42,575 nt of DNA from an uncultured Acidobacteriia bacterium (GTDB taxonomy: Bacteria; Acidobacteriota; Terriglobia; Bryobacterales; Bryobacteraceae). Position numbers and translations under genes: made by a program. Shown here piece after piece: positions 1-42,575 of the stretch (positions are counted from its first letter, which is position 1; each line of letters begins with the position of its first letter). The stretch spans positions 1 to 42,575 of the forward strand of contig CAIYDY010000456.1 in assembly GCA_903925015.1 (NCBI GenBank), given 5' to 3'. Below the pieces are notes generated by a model. It was not told where the DNA came from. It searched no databases and was given only the letters and a program-made list of their open reading frames with translations.

Positions 1-105
1 CGTTAGCGTCGCCTCCGTTAGCGTCGCCTCCGTTAGCGTCGCCTCCGTTAGCGTCGCCTCCGTTAGCGTCGCCTCCGTTAGTGTCGCCTCCGTCGGTAGC
101 GCCCC
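1..105 (+). repeat. 15-bp tandem repeat coding for VSVAS
   Basis: Six consecutive 15-bp units (CGTTAGCGTCGCCTC) fill 1-90, with one synonymous change (C to T in unit 6), and a degenerate seventh unit follows at 91-105. The array starts at the window edge, so its real length is unknown. The unit is a multiple of three and is in frame with the downstream kinase; it encodes V-S-V-A-S pentapeptides. Units this similar suggest recent slipped-strand expansion, and a change in copy number would keep the kinase in frame. Confidence 0.9.
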
Positions 106-2419
106 CATCAGAGTTGGGGACGTCCTCGCCGGACGGTTCCGACTCGCCGCCCTCCTCGGCGAAGGCGGCATGGGCCAGGTCTTCGCCGCCGAGGACACCC
201 TGGTGGGCTCGACCATCGCCATAAAGGTCATCCACCCGGGTTTCATCGCCCATCCCGAGGCGCGCAGTCATCTCATCGACGAACTCCGGATGGCCCGACT
301 CGTCACCGACCCGCACATTTGCCGCCTCTACGACGTGGTCGAATGTCCGGCGGATTCGGTGTCGGGCATCTCCCTGCTTTTTCTCACGATGGAGTTGTTT
401 GTCGGCGAGACCTTGGCCGAACGCCTTGGCCGGGACTCGCGACTCCCGGTTGGCGAAGCGAAGCTGCTGGCGGGACAGATTACCTGGGCTCTCGCCACCC
501 TGAATTCCTCGGGAGTGATCCACGGTGATCTGAAGCCCGCCAACATCATGCTGACGGTGAAGGATTCGAAACCCCACGCAGTTGTGATGGACTTCGGGTT
601 ATCGTCATCGACGCAGGAAGCCGGGAGCACCCCGGTATCGGGTGGCACTCCGGCCTACCTTGCCCCGGAGAGCCTCGCGGGAGGTCCGCCCAGCCCGGCG
701 GCAGACCAGTGGGCATTGGGCTTCGTGATGGCGCAGATGTTCACCGGTCTGGAACCCCGTTCGATCTTCAACCCGGTCACCGGAGCCTTGAGCGTGGGTG
801 CCCGCGCCGAGTTGAAGCAAATTGGGGAGCCTTGGGCTTCGGCGGTGCAAAGAAGCCTCAGCGTCGACCCTGCCGCGCGCTTCCCCACCTCCGCAGCCCT
901 GTGCGCGGCCACGGCAAGCAAACTGTTGTCGACGGGGAAGCTGTCGGGCTGGAAGATCCTCGGCTTGGCGTTCGCCGCCGTGGTGCTCTCGTTCTGCGCC
1001 GCTTTCGGGTGGTGGCTGGTGATTCCGAAATCCGACATTGCCATTCTTCCGTTCGCCAATGACACGGGGGATCCGGACCTCGCGTACGTGGCGGACGACC
1101 TCCCCGGATCCCTCCAGAAGAGCCTGGCTCACTTGCCCGCGCTCAACATGGCCTCCTGGAACGCCTGCCGCAAGTTCCGGGGGCCGCAATCCGACGCGAG
1201 GCAAGTGGGCAACGATCTCCACACGCGCTCGTACCTGACGGGAAGGTTGAGCCGACGGGGGGCGGAACTGGAGCTGGCGGTTGAGCTGGTGGATGTTTCG
1301 ACCGGCGAGCGCCGCTGGTCCCGCCGTTATCAGAGGCAGAAAACGGAACTGGCGGATCTGGAGGCGGCGCTGGTGAGCGACGTTCAGGCGCGGCTCGCGC
1401 CCGGCTCGCCCCGTTCCGCCGTGCACGCCCCGTCTCCCGCAGCCTATGAGCTCTACCTCCGTGGGCTGAGTTTGTCACACCGGCGCAGCGAGCAGAATCT
1501 GGAGGAAGCGGTGGAATACTTCCGCGAGGCTGTGACGAAGGACCCTGACTACGCCCTCGCCCATGCCGCAATCGCGGAGCTTTATGAGCAAATCGTAGCA
1601 ACCAGGATTCAGGTGGGGGCGGGTCTGCTGCCGCGGGCAAAGTTGGAGGCACGGCGCGCGGTGGAACTCGATCCCGGCCTTGGAGAGGCCCATGCCGCAT
1701 TGGGTGTCGCGCTAGCGGCGAATGATTTCAACTGGACGGATGCGGAGGCGCAGTTCCGGGAGGCTATCCGGCTCGATCCCCGCAATGCCGAGATTCATGA
1801 CCTGTTTTCGCAGCAGGTCCTGCTGCCGCTCCGCCGTTATGAGGAAGCCGTCATCGAAGCCAAGAGGTCGATCGATCTGGAACCGGACTATTACGTCAGC
1901 CGATTCCACCTGGTCTACGTCCTGGTCATGGCCCGTCGTTACAATTTGGTTCTTGCGTTGTTGCCGGCGGCCCCCAAGGAGAAGGCTCCAGAGGCCATCG
2001 AGGCCTTCGCAGTGATCACGAGTATGTTCCGCGCAGGCGCCCTGATGGGTCTCGGCCGCACTGAGGATGCCATCGCGGCCACCAACGGTGTGGCGGCGAG
2101 CCCGTCTTCGGAATCCGTCGCCATGTGGTTCTGGGCCAACCGTGCCATGCGCGCATGCGCGCTGGCCAAGGGGGGGCACCGCCGCGAGGCCGAGGTGCTG
2201 TTGGCGCGGATCGAGTCGACCGGTCGGATGGGCGTTTCCGTCGATATGGCGGCAGCTTACTTGGCGCTCGGGGACAAGGACCGGGCGCTGTCGCTGTTGC
2301 AACGAGGCTACAGCGACCGGGAGGCCGACTTCAGGCTCGTCGGGTCCGACATCCGCTTTGACGGTTTGCGCGACGATCCGCGGTTCCGGGCGTTGATGGC
2401 GAAGGCAAACCTGCCGTAG
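2..2419 (+). CDS. Serine/threonine protein kinase with TolB-like and TPR domains, 5' end outside window
   Basis: A membrane Ser/Thr kinase of the eukaryotic-like (PknB/Hanks) type. The frame is open from base 2 with no start codon before ATG 170, and that ATG lies inside the glycine-rich loop (GEGGMGQVF), so the true start is left of the window. Numbering from base 2: glycine loop near residue 53, catalytic Lys of AIK at 75, HGDLKPAN at 174, DFG at 197, PAYLAPE about 20 residues later. The Arg of the usual HRD is Gly, so this is a non-RD kinase. One membrane helix lies at about 319-342. Next comes a segment starting DIAILPFAND, like the TolB-N/adenylate-cyclase-associated domain, then TPR-like repeats (about 460-700) and a C-terminus of the DDPRF type common in Acidobacteria. 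The kinase domain should be cytoplasmic and the TPR part periplasmic. The substrate is unknown. Confidence 0.93.
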   Translation, partial: VSVASVSVASVSVASVSVASVSVASVSVASVGSAPIRVGDVLAGRFRLAALLGEGGMGQVFAAEDTLVGSTIAIKVIHPGFIAHPEARSHLIDELRMARLVTDPHICRLYDVVECPADSVSGISLLFLTMELFVGETLAERLGRDSRLPVGEAKLLAGQITWALATLNSSGVIHGDLKPANIMLTVKDSKPHAVVMDFGLSSSTQEAGSTPVSGGTPAYLAPESLAGGPPSPAADQWALGFVMAQMFTGLEPRSIFNPVTGALSVGARAELKQIGEPWASAVQRSLSVDPAARFPTSAALCAATASKLLSTGKLSGWKILGLAFAAVVLSFCAAFGWWLVIPKSDIAILPFANDTGDPDLAYVADDLPGSLQKSLAHLPALNMASWNACRKFRGPQSDARQVGNDLHTRSYLTGRLSRRGAELELAVELVDVSTGERRWSRRYQRQKTELADLEAALVSDVQARLAPGSPRSAVHAPSPAAYELYLRGLSLSHRRSEQNLEEAVEYFREAVTKDPDYALAHAAIAELYEQIVATRIQVGAGLLPRAKLEARRAVELDPGLGEAHAALGVALAANDFNWTDAEAQFREAIRLDPRNAEIHDLFSQQVLLPLRRYEEAVIEAKRSIDLEPDYYVSRFHLVYVLVMARRYNLVLALLPAAPKEKAPEAIEAFAVITSMFRAGALMGLGRTEDAIAATNGVAASPSSESVAMWFWANRAMRACALAKGGHRREAEVLLARIESTGRMGVSVDMAAAYLALGDKDRALSLLQRGYSDREADFRLVGSDIRFDGLRDDPRFRALMAKANLP

Positions 2420-2456
2420 CGGGGGGTGGTGGAGGACCATAGGTTGACGCGCGCGG

Positions 2457-2485
2457 TTGACATACACGCGGAGCGTGCGTATTCT
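2457..2485 (+). promoter_or_regulatory. Sigma-70-type promoter of the antitoxin gene
   Basis: TTGACA at 2457-2462, a 17-bp spacer, and TATTCT at 2480-2485. The expected transcription start (about 7 bases after the -10) falls on or next to the GTG at 2492, and no Shine-Dalgarno sequence lies before that codon. This points to a leaderless mRNA and supports the GTG start. Confidence 0.72.
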
Positions 2486-2491
2486 GCGAAT

Positions 2492-2749
2492 GTGAACAAA
2501 CGAATCAATGTATTCCTTCCCGAGGGGACAATCGCACTGCTGGACCGCGTGACGACGAAGGGCAACCGCAGTCGCTTCATTGATGCTGCCGTGCTGCGTT
2601 TCGTCGAGGCCGGCGGTCGCGAAAGCCTTCGGGAGCAGCTTGAGGAAGGATATGCGGCACACGCAGCTTCGGACTTGGCGATTGCGTCCGACTGGTTCCC
2701 GTTGGACGAAGAGGCCTGGACCCGTGTTGCCCCGTTGGAAGCGAACTGA
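2492..2749 (+). CDS. MazE-like ribbon-helix-helix antitoxin
   Basis: An 85-aa protein starting at GTG 2492 (VNKRINVFLPEGTIALLDRV). The N-terminal beta strand (KRINVFLP) followed by a two-helix segment with RSRFIDAAV is the ribbon-helix-helix DNA-binding pattern of CopG/MazE-type antitoxins. The C-terminal half is acidic, with a W-F-x-L-x-E-E-A-W segment typical of the toxin-binding tail. It should bind its own promoter and neutralise the toxin encoded 8 bp downstream, but that mazF is frameshifted. A longer reading from GTG 2426 would start upstream of the promoter and is not preferred. The gene appears intact. Confidence 0.82.
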   Translation: MNKRINVFLPEGTIALLDRVTTKGNRSRFIDAAVLRFVEAGGRESLREQLEEGYAAHAASDLAIASDWFPLDEEAWTRVAPLEAN

Positions 2750-2757
2750 CCACGCCC

Positions 2758-3097
2758 TTGCGGGGCGAGATCTACCCCGTTGACTTCGACCCGACTCGCG
2801 GCCACGAGATCCAGAAAACCCGGCCAGCGAATCGTGGTCCAGAACGACATCGGCAATGCGCGGAGCCCGATCACCATTGTTGCCGCGATCACGTCGAACT
2901 TGGCCTGGCATCCGGTGGCCGTGCCAATCCTCCCGAAACCGGGAACGGGGCTGTCGGTTCCCTCCGCAATCCATTTGGGACAGATCCGATCGATTGACCG
3001 GGAGCGATTGGTCAAGCGGCTGGGGGCGGTCCACGAGGGAACCATGCGCCAAGTGGACCGGGCTCTGATGATTAGTTTGGGCCTGGCAGGTCTTTAG
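2758..3097 (+). pseudogene. mazF-like mRNA interferase, frameshifted
   Basis: The MazF (PemK-like endoribonuclease) sequence is split over two frames. TTG 2758 starts RGEIYPVDFDPTRGHEIQKT-RPA, then the match continues one frame further on as IVVQNDIGNARSPITIVAAITSN up to SLGLAGL and a TAG at 3095-3097. One extra base at about 2830, in the AA of GCGAATC, explains the shift. Removing it gives KTRPA-IVVQND, the usual family sequence, and a protein of about 112 aa. As written, translation ends at 2997 in a nonsense tail, so the toxin should be inactive. A sequencing error is the main alternative. Confidence 0.8.
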
Positions 3098-3179
3098 CGT
3101 TGCGGCTCTCCGTTCGCGAAGCGCCGATCCCAGATTGCGCGGACGGTTCCCAAGGGCCTCGGGGGTGACCTGTTTCCTG
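2991..3179 (+). repeat. Duplicated mazF tail and downstream spacer, copy 1
   Basis: This segment (mazF 3' end, TAG and about 80 bp of spacer, ending TTTCCTG) is closely matched by 3852-4034 in the same orientation. Shared landmarks are GAGCGATTGGTCAAGCGG, the TCTTTAGCGTTGCGG stop region, GCGAAGCGCCGATC and CTGTTTCCTG. The copies differ by scattered substitutions and a 5-bp indel, so the duplication is not recent. Confidence 0.85.
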
Positions 3180-3352
3180 ATCGACATGAATTTGGCCTTG
3201 AATCCGTACACTGATCCGAGGTGGGCGCGGTCAATGCGCCGGATGTCGAAATAGTGGACTATGCCGCCGCGAACGGCTTTACCGTCCTTGCACAGGACTT
3301 GGATTTTGGCGCGATTCTCGCGGGCGATGAACTCGGATCGGGAGCAATCGGC
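3175..3352 (+). pseudogene. DUF5615 PIN-like toxin remnant, N-terminal part
   Basis: This is a decayed copy of the toxin at 4299-4673. It keeps the equivalent of LIDMNL, then lacks about 34 bp present in the intact gene (between two TTTG tetramers there), which shifts the frame. It resumes with VGAVNAPDVEIVDYAAANGFTV and AQDLDFGAILA. Similarity ends near 3352, where a different sequence begins. The antitoxin gene that should precede it is missing: the sequence passes from the upstream spacer directly to the toxin at a TCCTG (3175-3179) that occurs at both corresponding places in the intact locus (4030-4034 and 4306-4310). An open frame through 3221-3748 joins this remnant to the next gene by accident. 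Confidence 0.8.
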
Positions 3353-3502
3353 CTCCCAACAGATCCGCAAGCCAATGGGTTTGGAAACAAGAACGACGGA
3401 AGGCCAGTTGGGGGCCTCAAAAGCAACGCCACCTGTTTTCGCCAGTTTTTGAATTATCATGGGAGTACCGGAAATTCGTTTCGGGTGCCCCGGAAGGACT
3501 CT

Positions 3503-3748
3503 ATGACCAACCAACAGCTCTACCTTGCCATCGGCGTCCCGATGCTCTTCAACGCCATCCTCATCGGTCTTCTGGTCGGCTACATCAACGCCAAGTTCGA
3601 CGCCGTCAACAACAAGTTCGATGCCAAATTCGACGGCATCAACAAGCGTTTCGACGATATGCGCGACCTTTGGCGGGCCGAACTCCGCCGCGTGGAGGAA
3701 GTCTTGGACGCCCGCCTGAAGCACCTCGAAGAGTACGCCAAACACTGA
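3503..3748 (+). CDS. Small membrane-anchored coiled-coil protein
   Basis: An 81-aa protein starting at ATG 3503, with a good ribosome site (GGAAGGA, 3492-3498). Residues 5-28 form one hydrophobic helix (LYLAIGVPMLFNAILIGLLV). After it come repeats of K-F-D spaced 4-7 residues apart (KFDAVNN, KFDA, KFDGINK, RFDDM), then a charged helix with R-R-V-E-E-V-L and LKHLEE, consistent with a coiled coil. A short N-terminal anchor plus soluble coiled coil fits a small envelope or scaffold protein. Similar short proteins are frequent in Solibacter-type genomes (from memory). It sits between fragments of a toxin gene, so it may have been carried in by an insertion. Function unknown. Confidence 0.72.
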   Translation: MTNQQLYLAIGVPMLFNAILIGLLVGYINAKFDAVNNKFDAKFDGINKRFDDMRDLWRAELRRVEEVLDARLKHLEEYAKH

Positions 3749-3814
3749 AAGACCCGCACGGATGACGCATGGATGCGTCAACGGTGCCGCTACGACGCCA
3801 TCGGTCTGGCGAAG

Positions 3815-3855
3815 GAGGGTTCAGCCGTATCCGAATCCCTCCGTTTCGGCTATTG
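3815..3855 (+). pseudogene. DUF5615 toxin fragment, C-terminal end
   Basis: CAGCCGTATCCGAATCCCTC and the following bases match the end of the intact toxin gene near 4632-4668 (CAGCCGTATCAGAATCC). They encode SRIRIPPFR against SRIRILPFR. With the N-terminal remnant at 3175-3352 it suggests one ancient DUF5615 gene later interrupted by the segment carrying the 3503-3748 gene, though separate fragments are also possible. Confidence 0.6.
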
Positions 3856-4034
3856 AGCGGGAGCGATTGGTCAAGCGGCTGGGGGCGGTCGACGCGGGAA
3901 CCATGCGCTAACCGGGCTCTGATGATCAGTTTGGGGCTGGCAGCTCTTTAGCGTTGCGGATCTACGTTTGCGAAGCGCCGATCGCAGATTGCTCGGACGG
4001 TTCCCAACGTGCCTCGCGGGTGATCTGTTTCCTG
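3852..4034 (+). repeat. Duplicated mazF tail and spacer, copy 2
   Basis: This is the second copy of the 2991-3179 segment. The mazF tail here (to the TAG ending at 3951) is only a 3' fragment without start or catalytic part; it encodes RALMISLGLAAL at its end. The rest of 3749-4059 holds no gene: 3749-3814 shows nothing recognisable, and 3952-4034 is the duplicated spacer that leads to the intact DUF433 gene. Confidence 0.82.
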
Positions 4035-4059
4035 CTAGGATGTGGATGGAGACACGACT

Positions 4060-4302
4060 ATGGTTGGGCGGTTGGCTGAATACGACCGGATTACCCGCAC
4101 GGCGGGTGTGATGGCGGGGAAGGCGTGCATTCGGGGCATGCGAGTCACCGTTGGTATGATTGTCGGCCAGATTGGGGCTGGACATACCGTGGAGGAGCTG
4201 CTCGAAGACTATCCCTATCTGGAAAGGGAAGACATCCTGCAGGCATTGCGCTACGCCGCTTGGAAGGTGGAGGACCGGGAATCCGAGCCGGTCGCCGCGT
4301 GA
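4060..4302 (+). CDS. DUF433 antitoxin (VapB-like)
   Basis: An 80-aa protein from ATG 4060 (MVGRLAEYDRITRTAGVMAGKACIRGMRVTVGMIVG). The order I-T-x-x-x-G-V-x-x-G-K-x-C-I-R-G-x-R-V-T-V and then a helix with EDILQALRYAAW is the DUF433 pattern, a winged-helix-like family that pairs with DUF5615 PIN-like toxins. A GTG at 4042 gives six extra residues; ATG 4060 was chosen because it matches the family's usual N-terminus. The stop overlaps the start of the toxin gene by four bases (GTGA), so the two are translationally coupled. It should neutralise and autoregulate the toxin pair. Intact. Confidence 0.85.
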   Translation: MVGRLAEYDRITRTAGVMAGKACIRGMRVTVGMIVGQIGAGHTVEELLEDYPYLEREDILQALRYAAWKVEDRESEPVAA

Positions 4303-4673
4303 AGATCCTGATCGACATGAATTTGTCGACCAAATGGAGTTCGGCCTTGCAATCTTTTGGCCTTGAATCTGTGCACTGGTCTGATGTGGGCGCGGTCAAT
4401 GCGCCCGATGTAGAGATCGTGGACTATGCGGTCGCGAACGGCTATACCGTCCTGACACAGGACTTGGACTTTGGCGCGATACTGGCATCGTCGAACTCGG
4501 ATCGCCCGAGCGTTGTCCAACTCAGAACCGACGATCTGAGTCCCAAAGCCGTTGGAGCGCAGGTGATCGGTGCGATCTTGAAGTGGTCGTCGCAGCTGTC
4601 CTCGGGCGCGATGTTGACCGTGGAAAATGACGGCAGCCGTATCAGAATCCTTCCCTTTCGGCCACTGGTCTAG
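4299..4673 (+). CDS. DUF5615 family PIN-like toxin
   Basis: A 124-aa protein starting at GTG 4299, overlapping the DUF433 antitoxin stop. It begins VKILIDMNLS, with the first acidic residue of a PIN-like fold. VHWSDVGAVNAPDVEIVDYA and VLTQDLDFGAIL carry the further acidic positions characteristic of DUF5615 (related to Mut7-C and VapC nucleases). The likely activity is metal-dependent RNA cleavage restrained by the antitoxin, by family. It is the only complete toxin among the TA genes of this window. Confidence 0.85.
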   Translation: MKILIDMNLSTKWSSALQSFGLESVHWSDVGAVNAPDVEIVDYAVANGYTVLTQDLDFGAILASSNSDRPSVVQLRTDDLSPKAVGAQVIGAILKWSSQLSSGAMLTVENDGSRIRILPFRPLV

Positions 4674-36302: not shown

Positions 36303-36566
36303 TTATCCCGCCGCCCGGTCAATCCAGCTGCACAACGCAAGCAGTTTCGCGCCGGAATCGGTCGATTGCGTCCGCTCGGCCTCCGACGCAAAGTCAAACG
36401 CGAGTCCAAGGTCACCCCGGCCCAGAGCGCTCCGGGCTTGCGACCGGTACCGCCAAGCAGCCACCGCCAGCAGCATCAGCGGCCGCAGGTCCGCCCCGCA
36501 CCGGGAGCATTCCACGGCCCCCCGGAACTTGGCCCGGCAAACCGGACACTTGCCAGCCTCCGTCAA
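36303..36566 (-). CDS. Small zinc-ribbon protein at the end of the Hsp70 operon
   Basis: An 87-aa protein. The N-terminus holds two Cys pairs (CPVCRAKFRG and CSRCGADL) that form a zinc ribbon. The rest is helical and Ala/Arg-rich (AAWRYRSQARSALGRGDLG, residues about 36-55), reading like one or two TPR-like helices. The start overlaps the Hsp70 stop by four bases, so it is coupled to it. It probably serves the chaperone module, perhaps in client binding, by analogy with zinc-binding regions of J-proteins (inference). Confidence 0.75.
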   Translation of the reverse strand: MTEAGKCPVCRAKFRGAVECSRCGADLRPLMLLAVAAWRYRSQARSALGRGDLGLAFDFASEAERTQSTDSGAKLLALCSWIDRAAG

Positions 36567-38410
36567 TTCGGCCGCCCCTCCATAAAGAACAACAATTCCT
36601 TCAAACCGCGCGCGGCGTCGTTCATGCCAACGACGTCGCCCATCTTGATCGCTTCATGGATCCGTTCATGCAGCTCCACAGCCTCCTCGCGGTCCTCCGA
36701 GTGCATCCGCTCAAGGAGTTTCCGAGAACGATCCACCAGCCCCACCGCCGCTTCCTCGCCCGGCAACGGGTCACGGAACGCGGCCTCGATCTCGCTCAGT
36801 GCCGGGTCAAGCGCCGCCAGCTCTTCCTCGTCCCAGTCCTCGCCGTCGTGATCGTGGTCATGATCATGGTGTTCATGCTCGAACGCCTCCGCACGGGCTT
36901 GGAACATTTCCTCCAGCCGCTTGCGCGCCGCCCGGATCTCCTCGTCGCTCTTGGCCTTCAGCGCGTTGTCGATTGTGATCCGCTTCGATTTGCCGGTACG
37001 CTTCTCGACGGCGGTCACTTCGAGAATCCCGTCCAGATCCAACCGCATGCGGCAAATCATTTCATTCGCGCCGGACATGCCGGTCAGGCCCTCGATGGTG
37101 AAGTTCCCCACCGGGACGTTCTTCAGCGCGTCCTCGTCCTCGCCCTGGTACACCTGAAGATCCACCTCCGTCTGGAACGGATGGCTTGTCGAATATTCCT
37201 CGCTCCGCGTCAGGGGCAGGGGAGTGTTGCGCCGGATAATTGGCTTGTAACAGTGGGGATACGGCACGCCGCCGCGTTCGCCCAGAAACGAAATCCCGAA
37301 CGAGTACGGCGAAACGTCCACCAGCACCCGTCCCGCATCCCGACCGGAAAGCCGCGATGCCAGAACACCCGCACCCAGCGCCACGCACAAATCGGGATGC
37401 ACATCCTGCCGCGGTTCAATCCCAATCCGCTCCCGCAGCATTTCGAAAACCAACGGCGTTCGCGTAGACCCACCGACCAGCAGCACCGCGTCCATGTCGC
37501 TGGGTTTGCGCCCTGAATCCGAGAGCGCCTTCGAAACGCTGTCCAGCGTCGATTCCACCAAGCCCCGGATCATATCCTCGTAGTCTTTCCGGGAAATCTC
37601 CATCTCCAAGTGCAGCGGTCGACCGTTGCGCGTCGTGACGGACTCCTCACGGATCTGGACATAGACCTCCGAACTGAGCTTCTTCTTCGCCTCCTCGGCC
37701 GCCCACCAAAGCCTTGCCTTGGCACCGGGCGTATTGCCTTGGCGAACGTCGATTCCGTGCTGCCGCTCAAACTCCCGGCACAAATGCGCTGCCAGAAGAT
37801 CGTCGAAGTCGTCACCGCCCAGCTTGTTGTTGCCGTGGCTGGCCAGCACCTCCGTAATCTCGCCCTCCACCGAAACTACTGACACGTCAAAGGTGCCGCC
37901 ACCCAAGTCGTACACCAGCGCCGTATGCCGACCGCCGCCCGCGTACCCATACGCAAGGCTCGCCGCCGTCGGCTCATTCAGAATCCGGACCACTTCCAAC
38001 CCTGCCAGCGCCCCCGCCTCGCGCGTTGCTGCCCGTTGCGCATCGGAAAAATAGGCAGGCACCGTGATCACGGCCTTGTTCGGCGTCCCGCCCAACGCGC
38101 TTTTCGCCCAACCCGCCAGTTCCCGCAAAATCAGTGAAGAAACTTCCGTCGGCGAAAACGACTTTCCCGCGATCATCACCGATTCGGAGCTGCCCATCCG
38201 GCGCTTGATGCTGCGTATCGTCCTCTCCGGATACAATGCCAGCTGGTTGCGCGCGCTTTCGCCCACCAATAGTTCGCCACCCGCCGAAAAGCCCACACAG
38301 GATGGAAGAATTTGATTGCCAGGCCCTAACACCTGCACACGACCGTCCAGAAAGCCCGCCACCTCCGAGTTGGTGGTTCCAAGGTCGATACCGACAATTA
38401 GATCTGCCAT
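36563..38410 (-). CDS. HscC-like Hsp70 chaperone with His/Asp-rich tract
   Basis: A 615-aa Hsp70 from ATG 38410. ATPase motifs: LIVGIDLGTTNSEVA, PNKAVITVPAYFSDAQR, ALVYDLGGGTFDVSV, AVLLVGGSTRTPLV. The substrate domain is recognisable (VDVSPYSFGISF, TPLPLTRSEEYST, GNFTIEGLTG). The sequence is shorter and more divergent than DnaK and resembles HscC. At about residues 507-523 an acidic, His-rich tract alternates His and Asp (EHHDHDHDHDGED), a likely metal-binding or disordered linker, then a helical lid. It lies 8 bp after the GrpE-like gene. It should act with the J-like and GrpE-like products on specific clients rather than as the general DnaK. Confidence 0.92.
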   Translation of the reverse strand: MADLIVGIDLGTTNSEVAGFLDGRVQVLGPGNQILPSCVGFSAGGELLVGESARNQLALYPERTIRSIKRRMGSSESVMIAGKSFSPTEVSSLILRELAGWAKSALGGTPNKAVITVPAYFSDAQRAATREAGALAGLEVVRILNEPTAASLAYGYAGGGRHTALVYDLGGGTFDVSVVSVEGEITEVLASHGNNKLGGDDFDDLLAAHLCREFERQHGIDVRQGNTPGAKARLWWAAEEAKKKLSSEVYVQIREESVTTRNGRPLHLEMEISRKDYEDMIRGLVESTLDSVSKALSDSGRKPSDMDAVLLVGGSTRTPLVFEMLRERIGIEPRQDVHPDLCVALGAGVLASRLSGRDAGRVLVDVSPYSFGISFLGERGGVPYPHCYKPIIRRNTPLPLTRSEEYSTSHPFQTEVDLQVYQGEDEDALKNVPVGNFTIEGLTGMSGANEMICRMRLDLDGILEVTAVEKRTGKSKRITIDNALKAKSDEEIRAARKRLEEMFQARAEAFEHEHHDHDHDHDGEDWDEEELAALDPALSEIEAAFRDPLPGEEAAVGLVDRSRKLLERMHSEDREEAVELHERIHEAIKMGDVVGMNDAARGLKELLFFMEGRPN

Positions 38411-38418
38411 AAATTGAA

Positions 38419-39144
38419 TTATCCGTTCCCGCCCTTTGCCACTTTCACCTGCGCCGTGCGGAAGACTTCGCCCTCCCACTCGTAGCCGCTCCGGTAAACT
38501 TCCAACACCGTGCCCTCGGCAACCCCAGCCGAAACCTCGGTTTCGATCGCGTTCATCCGCCGGGGATCGAACATCTGTCCCGCACAATGGATTTCCAGTG
38601 CGCCGAACTCTTCCAACGACTGGTCCAGCCGCTCCAGCCCCAGTTCATAACCCCGGATCAACGCCGCCACCGCGTCCAGCGCCGGATTCGCAGCCTGAGG
38701 GACAATCCCCAACAGCCTCTCCAGGAACCTGGGCTCCGGCGGCGGCACCCGTGCGGCATCCAAACAGGGCTTGGCCGACTCCAACCCGCGCACCAGCCGG
38801 TCCCGCAGATCCACCAGTTGCCCCAAAATTTGCTTCCGCGCACGCCTTTCCGCCTCCGCCTTCAGAAGCTTCTCTCGTTCCGCGTAAACAGCCTTCAACT
38901 CGGCGCCGACTCTTGCCGTCTGCGCCTCCAGCCCGCTCGTCAAATCCTGGAATGCGCGCCCTTGCATCCTTACTTCCTGCGTCAGCGCCGTCGTAGCCGA
39001 CCACAGCATGTAGGAATCGCACCGTGACTCGTCCCCATCGCCTTCGCCCAGCAGTTCCGCCGGAATTCCCGATGGTGCCGCTTCTTCCGATAAAGCCGCG
39101 TCCACAACCCCCTCGAAGCGGCGCAGAATTTCGTCGCGCGTCAT
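38419..39144 (-). CDS. GrpE-like nucleotide exchange factor
   Basis: A 241-aa protein from ATG 39144. The first about 60 residues are acidic and low in structure. A long coiled-coil helix follows (LEAQTARVGAELKAVYAEREKLL). The C-terminal beta domain has the GrpE signature: GQMFDPRRMNAIETEVSAGV followed by GTVLEVYRSGYEWEG and FRTAQVKVAKG. It should release ADP from the neighbouring Hsp70. Its start overlaps the J-like gene's stop by four bases. A longer upstream reading exists, but it would cover the J-like gene in another frame. Confidence 0.87.
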   Translation of the reverse strand: MTRDEILRRFEGVVDAALSEEAAPSGIPAELLGEGDGDESRCDSYMLWSATTALTQEVRMQGRAFQDLTSGLEAQTARVGAELKAVYAEREKLLKAEAERRARKQILGQLVDLRDRLVRGLESAKPCLDAARVPPPEPRFLERLLGIVPQAANPALDAVAALIRGYELGLERLDQSLEEFGALEIHCAGQMFDPRRMNAIETEVSAGVAEGTVLEVYRSGYEWEGEVFRTAQVKVAKGGNG

Positions 39145-39434
39145 TTGGATTTCAGCGCCTCGCGCCAAATCTTCGGCCCGACAAAGTCGCGCTTCACCGG
39201 CAGGTCGTCCACCAGCGTCTCCAGTTTGGGCAACGGATTGCCATCGCGCAGAATGTTCCGTGACCGCGCCCGCCGGTCCCGCAGCGCGGCATAGGCGTCG
39301 CGGATCTTTTCGAACTGCTCCGGCTCCCGGTCCGGCGGAAACTGGGCCACCTTCGCCAAATACGCTGCCCGGATCGCCTCCTCGCCAGCCTCTTCCGGCA
39401 CACCGAGCAGGAGTCGGGCTTCCATTTCCGTCAT
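39141..39434 (-). CDS. J-domain-like protein lacking the HPD motif
   Basis: A 97-aa protein. ARLLLGVPEEAGEEAIRAAYLAKVAQ and PEQFEKIRDAYAALRDRRARS have the spacing of helices I-III of a J domain. Where HPD should stand, the loop reads FPPDREP, so the His needed to stimulate Hsp70 ATPase is replaced. The remaining 45 residues have no known domain. It overlaps the genes on both sides by four bases, which ties it to the chaperone operon. It may be a degenerate or specialised co-chaperone. Confidence 0.78.
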   Translation of the reverse strand: MTEMEARLLLGVPEEAGEEAIRAAYLAKVAQFPPDREPEQFEKIRDAYAALRDRRARSRNILRDGNPLPKLETLVDDLPVKRDFVGPKIWREALKSK

Positions 39435-42121
39435 CGGCGTTTTCCCTTCTTCCCGGCACCGGGCTTCCCCGGGTCCATGTCCCCAACCATTGCCTGCAAC
39501 CTCGCCATCACTTCCGTCGGCGTCTGGCCCGACTTCATTCCGCCCACGAAAACCTCGTACATCGCTTGGACCACGTCGGGAGGCAGTCCCGGCGGGGCGC
39601 GCTCAAAAAAGCCCTGGCGCAGTTCGTCCTCGAACTCGTCCCCGAAGGGATCCATTTCCTCCTCGGCCTCATCCATCCATCTGGATTCCTGCCCTGCGGA
39701 AACCTTTTCCCCGCGCTTCCTCCGGCAAGCAGGGCAATCGCACGGAAGCTCCAGCAGGTCCCCGTAATCAGGGCCCGGATCCCCGTATTTCGGGAATGCT
39801 TTGGCCTGCTTCTCTTTCCGGACCACGTCCTGTGCCTGAGCCAGCGTCATGTTGCGCAGACTGCTCCCCGGCGGCGTCATGGAGACAGCCATCGCGTCCT
39901 CCACCACGGACGCATCCTGGTACTCGCGCCCCAGAACCGCTGCGGCATTTGCGCAAACTTCCACCCGGTCCGGACCGCCCGGAAGGCACTCGGCCCGGTC
40001 CACCAGGAAGCGCGGATCGGCCTCGGCGCTTCTTCCCAACCCTGCCTTGGTCGCCGCGAACGTCAACTCCTCGTAGCTGTAGTCCAAACCCAGCCTGGAG
40101 AGTGCGAGCAAATCCTCGGTTGACAGCGACCCCTCAACCTTCGGAATCATCGCCGTCGCGTCCTTCAAGTCCGGCACGGTAAACCAAAGGTCCAGCATCC
40201 CGAAATCGCGCCCGATTGTCGCAACCGTGCCCAGCATCTTCGGGAATTCCGGGTTGGCCGCCTTCTTGGACCTGTCCGGGGCAAATTCCGGCCCCTCCCC
40301 CAGCAAATGGCAAACCGTGTTCGCCAGCACCCGCACGCCATCCTTGCCAAGAACGGCCTCGATCTCCTTGAGCCTCCGGCCTGCCTCCCCGGAATCGCCG
40401 TTTTCCCGTGCGATCCGCCACGCAAGGGCCGCCAACACCAATGCCCTGTCACCTTGCACCGCCGCCGGAACCTCCGCCAGCAACTGCAGCTTCTCCGCCG
40501 CAAACCCCGGCTTCCCGCGCTTCAAATGCCCCGCCACCGCCCTCGTCAACAACCGCAGCCGCGCCGACCGCACTTTGGGATTGACCTGGTCGATCGCCTC
40601 CGCCCGCTCCAGATATTCCAGCGCCTTCTTGAACGCATTCCGTTCGTCGGCCTTGTCCATCAGCACCAGCAGGGGCTCGATGTCCCCCGGCAGCGCCGCA
40701 TGCCACGCAGTGGCAACCCGTACCGCATCCCGCTGGGCTGCAGCCTTGCCCTTCTGTCGCCGTCCCGTCGGTGCCGCCCACTGCATCCACTTGGCAAACG
40801 CCTCCGTATGCGGATCCATCTGGCATCCCATGCCGAAAAGCCTGTCCGGCTCCAGATAGTAAATGTCCGCCTCTCCCGGACCGTCCCAGTTCGCCCGCTC
40901 CTCCAACTGGACTTCCGCCAACTCCTCCGGTGCCACCCGCGTCAACAGCTCCGCCATGTGCAGGTAAACCGTCGCAGCCTCCACGCTGTCCCGCTCAATC
41001 GACCGGTCCTGGAACGCACCGTGCAGGAACGAGTCCCACGCCATGCACGCGTCCGGGAAGAAATACGGGTCGCGGGCATCCTCGAATCCGCGGGCCAGCA
41101 GCTGGAACAGCTCCGTATCCAGCTTCGCCAGCCCGTCCAAGGCCGCGAGGATACGCTCCTCGTCGTAACCCTCCACCATCGCCCGTATGTAGATGATGCG
41201 CTTGATCTCCTCCAGATGGTCGGGTGCGGCTTTCCGCCCTTCCTTGATCGTCAGTTCGATGGCCTTGCGCAGTTCCGGCTGCCTCGCCTCGTTGTCAAAC
41301 GCCGTCTGCAGGCTCCCCAGTGCCTTCTTCAGAGGACCGGTTTTCCCCGCGAAGGCCGAAAGCAGCTGCGTCGATGCTGCCGGCAACTCGCCATCAGGCC
41401 CGTTCTTACCAGGCCCGTTCTGACTCGGAGTCGCCAGCCGCAGCAACGCCGGCGCAAGCCGCGCTGGCACCGATTCCGGATGGATCAGCCCCGCCGACTC
41501 CCGGCATTTCGCATCGTCGCCGCGATGGAAATCCGCAATTGCCCGGATCAGCAGCTTCCACGGTGCCAGCGGGCTCCGGTGTGAGACTTCCGGCAGCGCG
41601 AGTTCCTCGTCCGTGACACTCCGGCTCGTGACCGCCGTGAACGCTTTGTCCAATGCAGCCGCAGCCACGCGCAGCGGATGTTCCGCCGGAAGCACGGGAG
41701 ACGCCGCGAGCGCCGCCAAGTCCCAAATCTCGCCCCGAATCCGTTGTTCCAGCTCCTTGCGGACTTCGGGTGTGCAGGTCGGATCGGCCATTGCCGTCAG
41801 CACTGCCGTCAAAAGTGTCGCCGGAGACCCTGTGGAATTCCCGTCGCCGTTGGTCCCCCCCAATCGCGACGCCAAGTCGGGAAAGCGCTCCCGCACCAAA
41901 TTCCGCAGCGCTTCGGCTTCCTGCTCCATGCCGTTGCGCGAAAGGGCTTCGATGCGGGCGCAATAGGCGTCCACCAACAGGCTCTCGGAACCCTCTGTTC
42001 CAAGGGCTTTGTGGTGCTCCTTCGCTGCATCGAGCGCCTGCTTGTATTTCCCCTCGGCCATCCAATGGCGGATGGAGTCAGGGGTTGCGACGGGAGTGGA
42101 CGGCTTTGGCGGCTTTTTCAC
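39431..42121 (-). CDS. Large helical-repeat protein of the Hsp70 operon
   Basis: An 896-aa cytoplasmic protein read from GTG 42121 (VKKPPKPSTP); an in-frame start at 42217 is possible but would run through two strong hairpins. There is no signal peptide or membrane helix. The sequence is almost all amphipathic helices with TPR-like segments (MAEGKYKQALDAAKEHHKAL, ALEYLERAEAIDQVNPKV, DRALVLAALAWRIARENG). Near residues 793-800 a CDCPACRRKRG cluster could bind zinc. The C-terminus is acidic (MDEAEEEMDPFGDEFEDEL), then basic (GKKGKRR). I do not recognise the family. As first gene of the operon it may be the client, scaffold or client-recruiting factor. Confidence 0.8.
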   Translation of the reverse strand: MKKPPKPSTPVATPDSIRHWMAEGKYKQALDAAKEHHKALGTEGSESLLVDAYCARIEALSRNGMEQEAEALRNLVRERFPDLASRLGGTNGDGNSTGSPATLLTAVLTAMADPTCTPEVRKELEQRIRGEIWDLAALAASPVLPAEHPLRVAAAALDKAFTAVTSRSVTDEELALPEVSHRSPLAPWKLLIRAIADFHRGDDAKCRESAGLIHPESVPARLAPALLRLATPSQNGPGKNGPDGELPAASTQLLSAFAGKTGPLKKALGSLQTAFDNEARQPELRKAIELTIKEGRKAAPDHLEEIKRIIYIRAMVEGYDEERILAALDGLAKLDTELFQLLARGFEDARDPYFFPDACMAWDSFLHGAFQDRSIERDSVEAATVYLHMAELLTRVAPEELAEVQLEERANWDGPGEADIYYLEPDRLFGMGCQMDPHTEAFAKWMQWAAPTGRRQKGKAAAQRDAVRVATAWHAALPGDIEPLLVLMDKADERNAFKKALEYLERAEAIDQVNPKVRSARLRLLTRAVAGHLKRGKPGFAAEKLQLLAEVPAAVQGDRALVLAALAWRIARENGDSGEAGRRLKEIEAVLGKDGVRVLANTVCHLLGEGPEFAPDRSKKAANPEFPKMLGTVATIGRDFGMLDLWFTVPDLKDATAMIPKVEGSLSTEDLLALSRLGLDYSYEELTFAATKAGLGRSAEADPRFLVDRAECLPGGPDRVEVCANAAAVLGREYQDASVVEDAMAVSMTPPGSSLRNMTLAQAQDVVRKEKQAKAFPKYGDPGPDYGDLLELPCDCPACRRKRGEKVSAGQESRWMDEAEEEMDPFGDEFEDELRQGFFERAPPGLPPDVVQAMYEVFVGGMKSGQTPTEVMARLQAMVGDMDPGKPGAGKKGKRR

Positions 42122-42271
42122 CTGGATACCTATGCCATTATCCCCTTTCCAACCTCTCCGTTGTGGGACAGGATGGTATCCTGCGCGGAGGTCGCTGACC
42201 TCCGCACGCGCCTTCAAGGCGCGGACCGATCACTTGTTTGCCCTCCTCGCGCGCTGCGCACCCCGCTAGTC
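42122..42271. promoter_or_regulatory. Upstream region of the chaperone operon with tandem hairpins
   Basis: This 150-bp gap holds two strong adjacent inverted repeats: GCGGAGGTC-GCT-GACCTCCGC (42185-42205) and CGCGCCT-TCA-AGGCGCG (42207-42223). They may insulate the chaperone operon from CRISPR transcription or be a REP-like element. A GATAAT on the minus strand near the GTG could be a -10, but no good -35 is found. The gap is GC-rich and does not look like a CRISPR leader. Confidence 0.55.
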
Positions 42272-42575
42272 GCTTCAATGGGGCCGGAAGCTTATGCTCC
42301 CGGAAATGAGTTGGGATTTCTTCTCCGCCATCACTCGCCCCCCAGCTTCAATGGGGCCGGAAGCTTATGCTCCCGGAAATGCAAAATGATGGAAGCGGAC
42401 GGCGCTTGAAAACAAATAGCTTCAATGGGGCCGGAAGCTTATGCTCCCGGAAATGTTGAACTTGATACGGCACGTCCTCGCCATCTGAGGCTTCAATGGG
42501 GCCGGAAGCTTATGCTCCCGGAAATCACCCACTACGCATCAAGGGTGACCCTTACCGCCATGCTTCAATGGGGCC
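42272..42575 (-). CRISPR. CRISPR array, 36-bp repeats, continues beyond the right edge
   Basis: Four identical 36-bp repeats at 42272-42307, 42345-42380, 42419-42454 and 42490-42525, and the first 14 bp of a fifth at 42562-42575. On the plus strand each begins GCTTCAATGGGGCC and ends CTCCCGGAAAT. Spacers are 37, 38, 35 and 36 bp and all different. The repeat contains an imperfect hairpin (CCGGAAGC/GCTCCCGG, one mismatch). Read on the minus strand it ends CCATTGAAGC, like the 5' handle (ATTGAAAC/G) of type I and III crRNAs. The array is thus probably transcribed leftward with its leader outside the window. No cas genes are visible, so the subtype is open. Confidence 0.95.

What the first reader, a model, noticed from the sequence alone, without database searches (positions are those of the whole stretch)
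36303..42121. Five-gene dedicated Hsp70 machine with an unrecognised large protein
Large helical-repeat protein, J-like, GrpE-like, HscC-like Hsp70 and zinc-ribbon protein are linked by four-base overlaps or an 8-bp gap. This is a complete chaperone cycle in one operon, separate from a housekeeping dnaK-grpE-dnaJ. The 896-aa first protein, with a CxCxxC cluster and a charged tail, has no function I can name and is the natural candidate for client or client adaptor.
Basis: partly seen in the sequence, partly recalled or inferred. Interest (0 to 1): 0.7.

Follow-up and report, generated by a model that had tools for sequence, protein, structure and literature searches.

The report
Dedicated Hsp70 machine with odd J-protein
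A soil bacterium carries a self-contained five-gene protein-folding machine, also found in the same order in other bacterial phyla, whose co-chaperone lacks the amino acid thought essential for switching the chaperone on and which travels with a large helical-repeat protein that probably brings the clients.

Summary
Five minus-strand genes (896, 97, 241, 615, 87 aa) are joined by three 4-base overlaps and one 8-bp gap. They are a unit: of 35 loci found with the 896-aa family alone, 26 have the same five genes in the same order, in Acidobacteria, Planctomycetota, Hydrogenedentota and a deltaproteobacterium; six of the other nine are cut by contig ends.

The large protein models as an all-helical, TPR-like solenoid (pLDDT 85). 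More distant relatives of the module carry recognised TPR proteins in that place.

Two features were not foreseen. None of 53 J-proteins of this clade has the histidine of the HPD motif; the window has PPD. The Hsp70 has HscC-type indels but keeps the GrpE-contact stretch that E. coli HscC lacks, matching its own GrpE.

Best reading: a GrpE-dependent HscC-type machine whose DjlC-like co-chaperone is split into a J-protein and a solenoid client adaptor. Stimulation without the histidine, and all physical contacts, are untested. A new variant of a known kind.

The parts
39431..42121 (-). gene 1: 896-aa TPR-like alpha-solenoid (proposed client adaptor / J scaffold); GTG start, basic tail
39725..39742 (-). 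CxCxxC cluster (C794, C796, C799) of the solenoid; absent from some homologues
39141..39434 (-). gene 2: 97-aa J-domain protein with PPD in place of HPD and a conserved C-terminal GPxxW tail
39330..39338 (-). P33-P34-D35, the position of the HPD motif
   Evidence: alignment; in the model it lies in the loop between helices 18-31 and 38-52
38419..39144 (-). gene 3: 241-aa dedicated GrpE-type nucleotide exchange factor
   Evidence: (Pfam GrpE 3.5e-21)
36563..38410 (-). gene 4: 615-aa HscC-type Hsp70 that keeps the subdomain IIB (GrpE-contact) stretch
36303..36566 (-). gene 5: 87-aa zinc-ribbon protein (C7, C10, C20, C23 invariant in 27 rows) with a helical-looking tail; TTG start

Best explanation
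It is a dedicated Hsp70 machine of the HscC/DjlC kind in a GrpE-dependent, split-co-chaperone form. Proposed cycle: the 896-aa solenoid binds the client (or docks the machine at a client-bearing structure) and holds the J-protein, perhaps by its conserved C-terminal GPxxW tail; J plus client trigger ATP hydrolysis in the Hsp70 through P34 and D35, without the HPD histidine; the dedicated GrpE releases ADP; the zinc-ribbon protein is a small regulatory or client-contact subunit. Shown here: gene identity, recurring gene order, correlated divergence, J and solenoid folds (as predictions), the His-less motif, the Hsp70 indels and the retained GrpE stretch. Inferred: all physical contacts, client binding by the solenoid, stimulation by J, action of GrpE, and the role of the zinc ribbon.
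For: Order big-J-GrpE-Hsp70-Zn in 26 of 35 loci. From the J side, among 396 Acidobacteriota genomes the two strong hits besides the window's own genome both have all five genes (one, G333, is the same locus as L063). The zinc-ribbon profile hits 3 of 396 genomes, the same three. Pairwise distance matrices of the five proteins correlate at r 0.73-0.96 over 24 loci, permuted maximum 0.37 (shared ancestry alone also gives some of this). Solenoid. In 14 further loci (12 places of the genome set around L053, two of G460) a stop-to-stop frame of 700 aa or more lies upstream of J on its strand, within about 0.6 kb, in all 14; of the seven that lack a strong match to the solenoid family, six have a TPR match above a Pfam cut-off and one only below it. 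One locus (L090) has J fused to TPR repeats. Hsp70: the 76-101 deletion, L1,2 insertion and helix B deletion of HscC, but 28-29 residues at DnaK 269-296 in 33 of 34 five-gene rows (23 in L126, a split gene), where E. coli HscC has 11 and HscA 17 (criteria from PMC8215388, passages). Link to DjlB/DjlC: same short helix II-III loop, and DjlB/C already deviate (HPE).
Against: No interaction or activity data. hhalign finds no similarity between the solenoid family and two TPR proteins of distant loci (L087, L092) or DjlC; the link rests on position, size and fold class, and TM-scores to PDB solenoids are low (0.11-0.25). The J model is of middling confidence (pLDDT 74) and no PDB match reaches E 0.001. 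The J tree has too few columns to place DjlB/DjlC. E. coli HscC sits on a very long branch, so its place in the Hsp70 tree is unsure. H-to-Q in HPD abolished ATPase stimulation in every system tested (PMC8215388). DnaK's L257/M259 are not kept at those positions in the window Hsp70 (G and K).
Confidence: 0.6

Rival explanations
1. The 896-aa protein is the dedicated client: the four downstream genes fold or assemble this one large solenoid, as HscA/HscB serve IscU.
For: It is the first and fastest-changing gene (mean identity 0.40 against 0.67 for Hsp70) and was seen without the chaperones in an uncut locus only as the L073 fragment.
Against: Solenoids of this kind are usually binding scaffolds (general knowledge); one relative fuses J to TPR repeats (L090), and recognised TPR proteins hold the same place beside J in distant loci, as expected of a co-chaperone part.
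Confidence: 0.22
2. The His-less J-protein is an inhibitory or docking J-like protein (Pam16-like), and a canonical DnaJ elsewhere in the genome does the stimulating.
For: HPD histidine absent in 53 of 53 clade rows; Pam16 has a degenerate motif and inhibits (PMC13254874 section 7); the genome holds four other DnaJ-domain matches.
Against: P34 is kept in 53 and an acidic residue at 35 in 52 of 53 rows (one PPQ), unlike Pam16's DKE or DKS; R167 is kept in every Hsp70 row but the two non-canonical own_C167 proteins; no second J gene is in the operon.
Confidence: 0.25
3. It is a phage-defence or CRISPR accessory module, since a CRISPR-type array abuts the operon.
For: Array at 42272-42575, also beside the operon in the near-identical operon of L039.
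Against: In a scan for exact 20-mers repeated three times or more at 50-89 bp, 55 of 59 sequences gave nothing; the four with a hit are the window, its sister locus held twice (L026, L039) and a 3-copy repeat in L051. No PADLOC match at E<=0.1 for any of the five proteins. Among the 30 largest neighbour clusters printed I saw no defence gene, judged by eye.
Confidence: 0.04
4. An ordinary second stress chaperone set with no special client.
For: An Hsp70, a J-domain and a GrpE are all there; the E. coli HscC peptide range is broad (PMC8215388, passages).
Against: Patchy distribution (8 of 61 relatives, 3 of 297 of the phylum sample, own genome counted in both), a recurring large solenoid and a diverged J interface point to specialisation.
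Confidence: 0.15

Closest known systems
E. coli HscC with DjlB/DjlC (ybeQ-ybeR-djlB-ybeT-ybeU-djlC-hscC)
   Same: HscC-type indels; J-domains with a deviating motif and the same short II-III loop; helical-repeat (Sel1) proteins annotated in the cluster (features from PMC8215388)
   Different: E. coli has HPE with the histidine kept, J joined to a large C-terminal part that is membrane-anchored (PMC8215388), no GrpE gene in the 12-kb stretch viewed and no GrpE-contact stretch; here J is a separate 97-aa protein, and a GrpE and a zinc ribbon are included
Canonical DnaK-DnaJ-GrpE
   Same: Hsp70 + J + GrpE parts; R167, N170, D393 and P419 of DnaK are kept in the window protein
   Different: PPD for HPD; Q378 replaced by L or M in 34 of 34 five-gene rows; no full-length DnaJ in the operon; own solenoid and zinc ribbon
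HscA-HscB (Isc)
   Same: dedicated Hsp70 plus dedicated J-protein
   Different: no Isc genes in this operon; the genome's own HscB/HscA-like pair is on C366; HPD kept in E. coli HscB
Myxococcus xanthus MXAN_6672-SglK (GrpE + MxDnaK2 bicistronic operon)
   Same: a second Hsp70 with its own GrpE (PMC11019930, passages)
   Different: SglK is DnaK-like and restored growth of an E. coli dnaK mutant (PMC8265645, passages); no J gene beside it (PMC11019930)
Pam16 / type IV J-proteins with altered HPD
   Same: J-fold without a full HPD (PMC13254874 section 7)
   Different: here xP(D/E) recurs across 52 of 53 rows and the gene overlaps or adjoins its Hsp70 operon

Membership tests
HscC-type Hsp70 | deletion of DnaK residues 76-101 | tested here: met
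   2 of 26 residues left, as in E. coli HscC
HscC-type Hsp70 | 4-8 aa insertion in L1,2 of SBD-beta | tested here: met
   19 residues where DnaK has 11 and EcHscC 15
HscC-type Hsp70 | about 9-residue deletion in helix B of the lid | tested here: met
   10-residue gap in the alignment
HscC-type Hsp70 | GrpE signature/contact region absent | tested here: not met
   28 residues at DnaK 269-296, EcHscC 11
HscC-type Hsp70 | length 550-580 aa | tested here: not met
   615 aa with an acidic, His-rich insert
HscC-type Hsp70 | groups with HscC in a tree | tested here: inconclusive
   separated from DnaK+HscA (those four rows group with 100/100), but the EcHscC branch is 4.1 long
J-domain proteins | J-domain sequence and fold | tested here: met
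   Pfam DnaJ over cut-off; best-ranked Foldseek matches are J-domains, best E 8.5e-3, none at 0.001
J-domain proteins | HPD motif | tested here: not met
   PPD; 0 of 53 clade rows have H
GrpE | Pfam GrpE over cut-off | tested here: met
   76 bits, cut-off 25.8
GrpE | nucleotide exchange on its Hsp70 | not testable with these tools
   needs protein
TPR proteins (896-aa protein) | TPR profile over cut-off | tested here: not met
   none of the listed families suggests it in the 27 members scanned; one member has TPR_14 at E 0.024; window protein none
TPR proteins (896-aa protein) | alpha-solenoid fold of TPR type | tested here: met
   model pLDDT 85.3; 52 PDB matches at E<=0.001; the 50 listed are helical-repeat scaffolds, judged from entry titles and recalled chain identities; TM-scores low, 0.11-0.25
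Known defence systems | PADLOC model match | tested here: not met
   0 at E<=0.1 for all five proteins

The most novel reading that the evidence does not exclude
A whole lineage of bacterial Hsp70 machines works without the HPD histidine: the xP(D/E) J-protein of this clade triggers its own Hsp70 by a rewired contact (Q378 to L/M in the five-gene class), with the co-encoded solenoid supplying positioning or activation that the histidine gives elsewhere. Altered HPD motifs would then be selected variants and not broken J-proteins.
Probability: 0.4. Interest if true: 0.8.

Novelty: new variant of a known kind. Interest (0 to 1): 0.62.

Why it matters
A 2026 review states that HPE seems to be the only tolerated HPD replacement and that it remains enigmatic whether deviations are accidents or selected (PMC13254874 section 7). 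Here is a J-clade with the histidine gone in every member collected, mostly in operons beside its partner Hsp70 and in several phyla, so the question can be tested with natural, co-evolved pairs. It also gives HscC, which in E. coli protects against cadmium and UV by an unknown mechanism (PMC8215388), a form with its own GrpE and a large adaptor that can be used as bait for clients.

Tried and rejected
N-terminal fusion: the frame of the large gene in L027/L041 runs 2,087 aa, but the extra part has weak codon-position bias and reads as a non-coding upstream frame; rejected by judgement. CxCxxC as a key part: dropped, absent in 7 homologues that reach the C-terminus. Treponema L073 tail resembling the J tail (GPxxW): a profile of the tail did not list that frame among its hits in 7,601 frames; dropped. 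Sequence link of the solenoid to TPR proteins of L087, L092 and to DjlC: none by hhalign. A constant sixth gene: of the 30 clusters printed, most are shadow frames of the five genes; a permease-like protein in 5 loci and a kinase-like one in 5 are the others of note, judged by eye. CRISPR or defence link: rejected. J tree for placing DjlB/C: unresolved.

Weak points of my own tests. The two HPD-bearing own-genome DnaJs were extracted by searching for HPD, so they are no control; two others (L133, L134) were not captured and dropped. Rows left out: one search left out own_C167a/b, S_L039, X_L093, X_L126; one search left out S_L039 and X_L093; one search used 24 loci of the 36 large-protein rows. 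L093 and L063 are the same locus and L039 is a 98% copy of the window's operon, so the 53 J rows are 51 distinct ones; the 34 five-gene Hsp70 rows include both. The J-side searches used a profile with invariant PP, which could disfavour HPD-bearing relatives, and scored only the best 12-20 candidates per genome. The scan used two short peptide patterns and is not exhaustive. In one search some zinc-ribbon coordinates are wrong (last domain printed); one search gives the census. In one search frames run stop to stop; in L121, L123 and L125 the coding part looks shorter than the frame.

Papers: PMC8215388 passages; PMC13254874 passages and section 7; PMC8265645 passages; PMC11019930 passages; Rv0991c/Ruc paper PMC7448276 only in a search listing. 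Barriot et al. 2020 and Malinverni et al. 2023, which may treat such J-proteins, are not held and were not seen; Kluck et al. 2002 is known only through the reviews. That this five-gene module was not found in print rests on searches only.
Full report
What is there. The window is one whole contig (G000:C456) of a 6.33-Mb, 459-contig genome. The closest homologous loci come from assemblies titled Acidobacteriia or Bryobacterales. Pfam gives DnaJ, GrpE and HSP70 over their cut-offs for genes 2-4 and nothing over cut-off for genes 1 and 5; NCBIfam gives no match at E<=0.1 for gene 1 and PADLOC none for any.

The housekeeping systems are elsewhere. Own-genome searches found DnaK on C441 with a DnaJ behind it, GrpE and DnaJ together on C122, an HscB/HscA-like pair behind isc-like genes on C366 (named by eye), further Hsp70-like matches on C289 and C449 (at contig ends), C167, C244 and C276, and a third GrpE-like frame on C308.

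Is the operon a unit? I searched with the first gene alone, so neighbours were not selected for. Relatives: 8 of 61 genomes including the window's own; phylum sample: 3 of 297 including own, one of them (G067) a short partial match. The scan of the species-genome collection gave 35 loci. A census with profiles of the five families gives big-J-GrpE-Hsp70-Zn, same order and strand, in 26 of 35; two of these (L058, L062) have the Hsp70 in two frames. Six end at a contig end inside or after the large gene or inside the operon (L046, L056, L066, L068, L071, L072). L059 has a split GrpE and no Hsp70 or zinc ribbon in the 3 kb that follow; L070 has lost the middle of the operon; L073 (Treponema) is a lone 390-aa frame with a short match, and its genome gave no J of this clade. 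From the other side: the J profile hit 9 of 396 Acidobacteriota genomes, of which the window's, G333 and G438 have all five genes; the zinc-ribbon profile hit 3 of 396, the same three. The J profile hit 14 of 246 genomes of the set around L053, whose title says Planctomycetota. One locus (L114) has the same genes in permuted order, Hsp70-Zn-big-J-GrpE. Distances among the five proteins correlate (r 0.73-0.96 over 24 loci), as for co-inherited genes, with the large protein changing fastest (mean identity 0.40, against 0.67 for Hsp70).

What the large protein is. Scans of 27 members gave only scattered Pfam matches of E 0.0027 or worse, each in one or two members, and PDB sequences gave nothing better than E 0.21. 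The model from 27 sequences has mean pLDDT 85.3, pTM 0.61 and only helices. Foldseek gives 52 PDB matches at E<=0.001; the 50 listed are helical-repeat scaffolds such as IFT-A, Ski3, Ctr9, APC/C subunits, Naa15 and TTC7B, judged from entry titles and recalled chain identities. TM-scores are low (0.11-0.25), as for solenoids of different curvature, so the fold class is supported and no closer relative is claimed. No transmembrane-like stretch is seen (highest 19-residue hydropathy 1.14).

A wider class. Weaker J hits (57-76 bits) lead to related modules: J, GrpE and Hsp70 with a 735- to 906-aa frame beside J. Of six Acidobacteriota loci of this sort (L087-L092), five have a 763- to 863-aa protein with TPR matches next to J; one of the five (L088) shows GrpE but no Hsp70 in the stretch held. 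The sixth (L090) has J and TPR in one protein, with no Hsp70 or GrpE in the 10 kb held. In all 14 loci a stop-to-stop frame of 700 aa or more lies upstream of J within about 0.6 kb; seven of them without a strong match to the window's solenoid family gave TPR matches, six above a cut-off and one (L119) only below it, while three others of the solenoid family scanned in the same call (L116, L117, L120) gave none above a cut-off. L119 and L122 give weak matches to the solenoid family as well (E 5e-5 to 4e-3), so they may be intermediates; they also carry a weakly matching zinc ribbon. Direct profile comparison with L087 and L092 found nothing. I read this as one architecture, J plus a large solenoid, with the solenoid diverged beyond sequence recognition; homology is likely but not shown.

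The J-protein. Aligned on E. coli DnaJ without gaps between helix II and the motif, the window protein reads P33-P34-D35. Of 53 clade rows (51 distinct ones), none has histidine at 33: the 31 rows of the first set are 29 PPD and 2 PPE; the 22 others are 9 PPD, 6 PPE, 2 SPE and one each of GPD, PPQ, SPD, TPE and APD. E. coli DjlB and DjlC, HscC partners, have HPE with the same shortened loop and a DPxGFK stretch. The model of the window J (pLDDT 74) has helices 3-10, 18-31, 38-52 and 54-64 with the motif in the 32-37 loop, and its best-ranked PDB matches are J-domains (E 8.5e-3 at best, none at 0.001). In DnaJ-DnaK, H33 bonds the linker backbone at L391, P34 touches P419 and D35 bonds R167 and Q378 (PMC8215388). 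In the window Hsp70 L391, P419 and R167 are kept. Q378 is L or M in 34 of 34 five-gene rows but Q in 10 of 11 rows of the wider class (one E). The His loss is therefore accompanied by other change at the same interface, though Q378 and the motif do not vary strictly together (L119 has PPD with Q).

The Hsp70. ATPase motifs are intact by eye. It has three HscC features named in PMC8215388: loss of 76-101, longer L1,2, shorter helix B. It fails a fourth: 28 residues are present at DnaK 269-296, where E. coli HscC has 11 and HscA 17. R55 with E267, a possible lower salt bridge, is present in the window protein, and K or R at 55 with E267 in most rows, but DnaK's L257/M259 are not kept in the window protein. 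A tree separates the clade from DnaK and HscA, groups all 31 five-gene rows used (100/98) and leaves E. coli HscC on a very long branch. So: HscC-type, not a canonical HscC, with a GrpE of its own and in a form that could bind it.

The zinc-ribbon protein. C7, C10, C20 and C23 are invariant in 27 of 27 rows, followed by a tail that by eye resembles one TPR. It is present also where the large protein lacks CxCxxC (for example L048, L051, L058, L069), so the two metal-like sites are not a matched pair. Its role is a guess.

Mechanism. Most likely the solenoid selects the client and carries the J-protein, J and client set off hydrolysis, GrpE resets. That the solenoid is the client remains possible (about one in five by my estimate). 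That J is only a docking or inhibitory part is about as likely. The steps that would decide are bench tests.

Novelty. The parts are known kinds; the combination (HscC-type Hsp70 with GrpE, separate His-less J, large solenoid, zinc ribbon) was not found in print by searches of an open-licence library, judged from listings and, for four papers, passages; two large surveys of J-proteins that might mention it are not held.

Noticed in passing
window 42272-42575: CRISPR-type array (36-nt repeat, spacing 71-74) running off the contig end beside the operon. The 98%-identical operon in L039 has the same repeat, and none of its 4 complete spacers equals the 3 complete ones of the window, so the array looks live. 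Cas1 matches lie on C91, C264 and C425 of the genome.
   Followed up: partly
window 42154-42226: Palindromic dispersed repeat between array and operon, 14 other matches in the genome at 74-91% identity, folds with z -4.6: REP-like.
   Followed up: partly
L036 (G000:C167) 8-4308: Two adjacent non-canonical Hsp70-like genes (about 556 and 877 aa), matching PF00012 over part of its length and lacking the DnaK interface residues at 167, 170 and 393.
   Followed up: no
G000:C308:5747-6019 (L130): Third GrpE-like match, inside a 503-aa open frame; partner Hsp70 not looked for.
   Followed up: no
L073 8986-10158: Treponema 390-aa frame with the WKLLIRAIA core of the large protein; profiles found no J, GrpE, Hsp70 or zinc ribbon in the 18 kb held. 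The only stand-alone relative seen.
   Followed up: partly
L068 175-3846: Large gene broken into several frames with a repeated segment, in an assembly (QHXW01) that has a second operon with all five genes in L047.
   Followed up: no
L126 and L127 (G460): One genome holds both kinds: a five-gene operon (Hsp70 in two frames) and a wider-class J-GrpE-Hsp70 set.
   Followed up: partly
window about 36566-36600: Conserved LLFFxEG-like end in most five-gene Hsp70s, a possible docking tail for the solenoid in place of EEVD.
   Followed up: no
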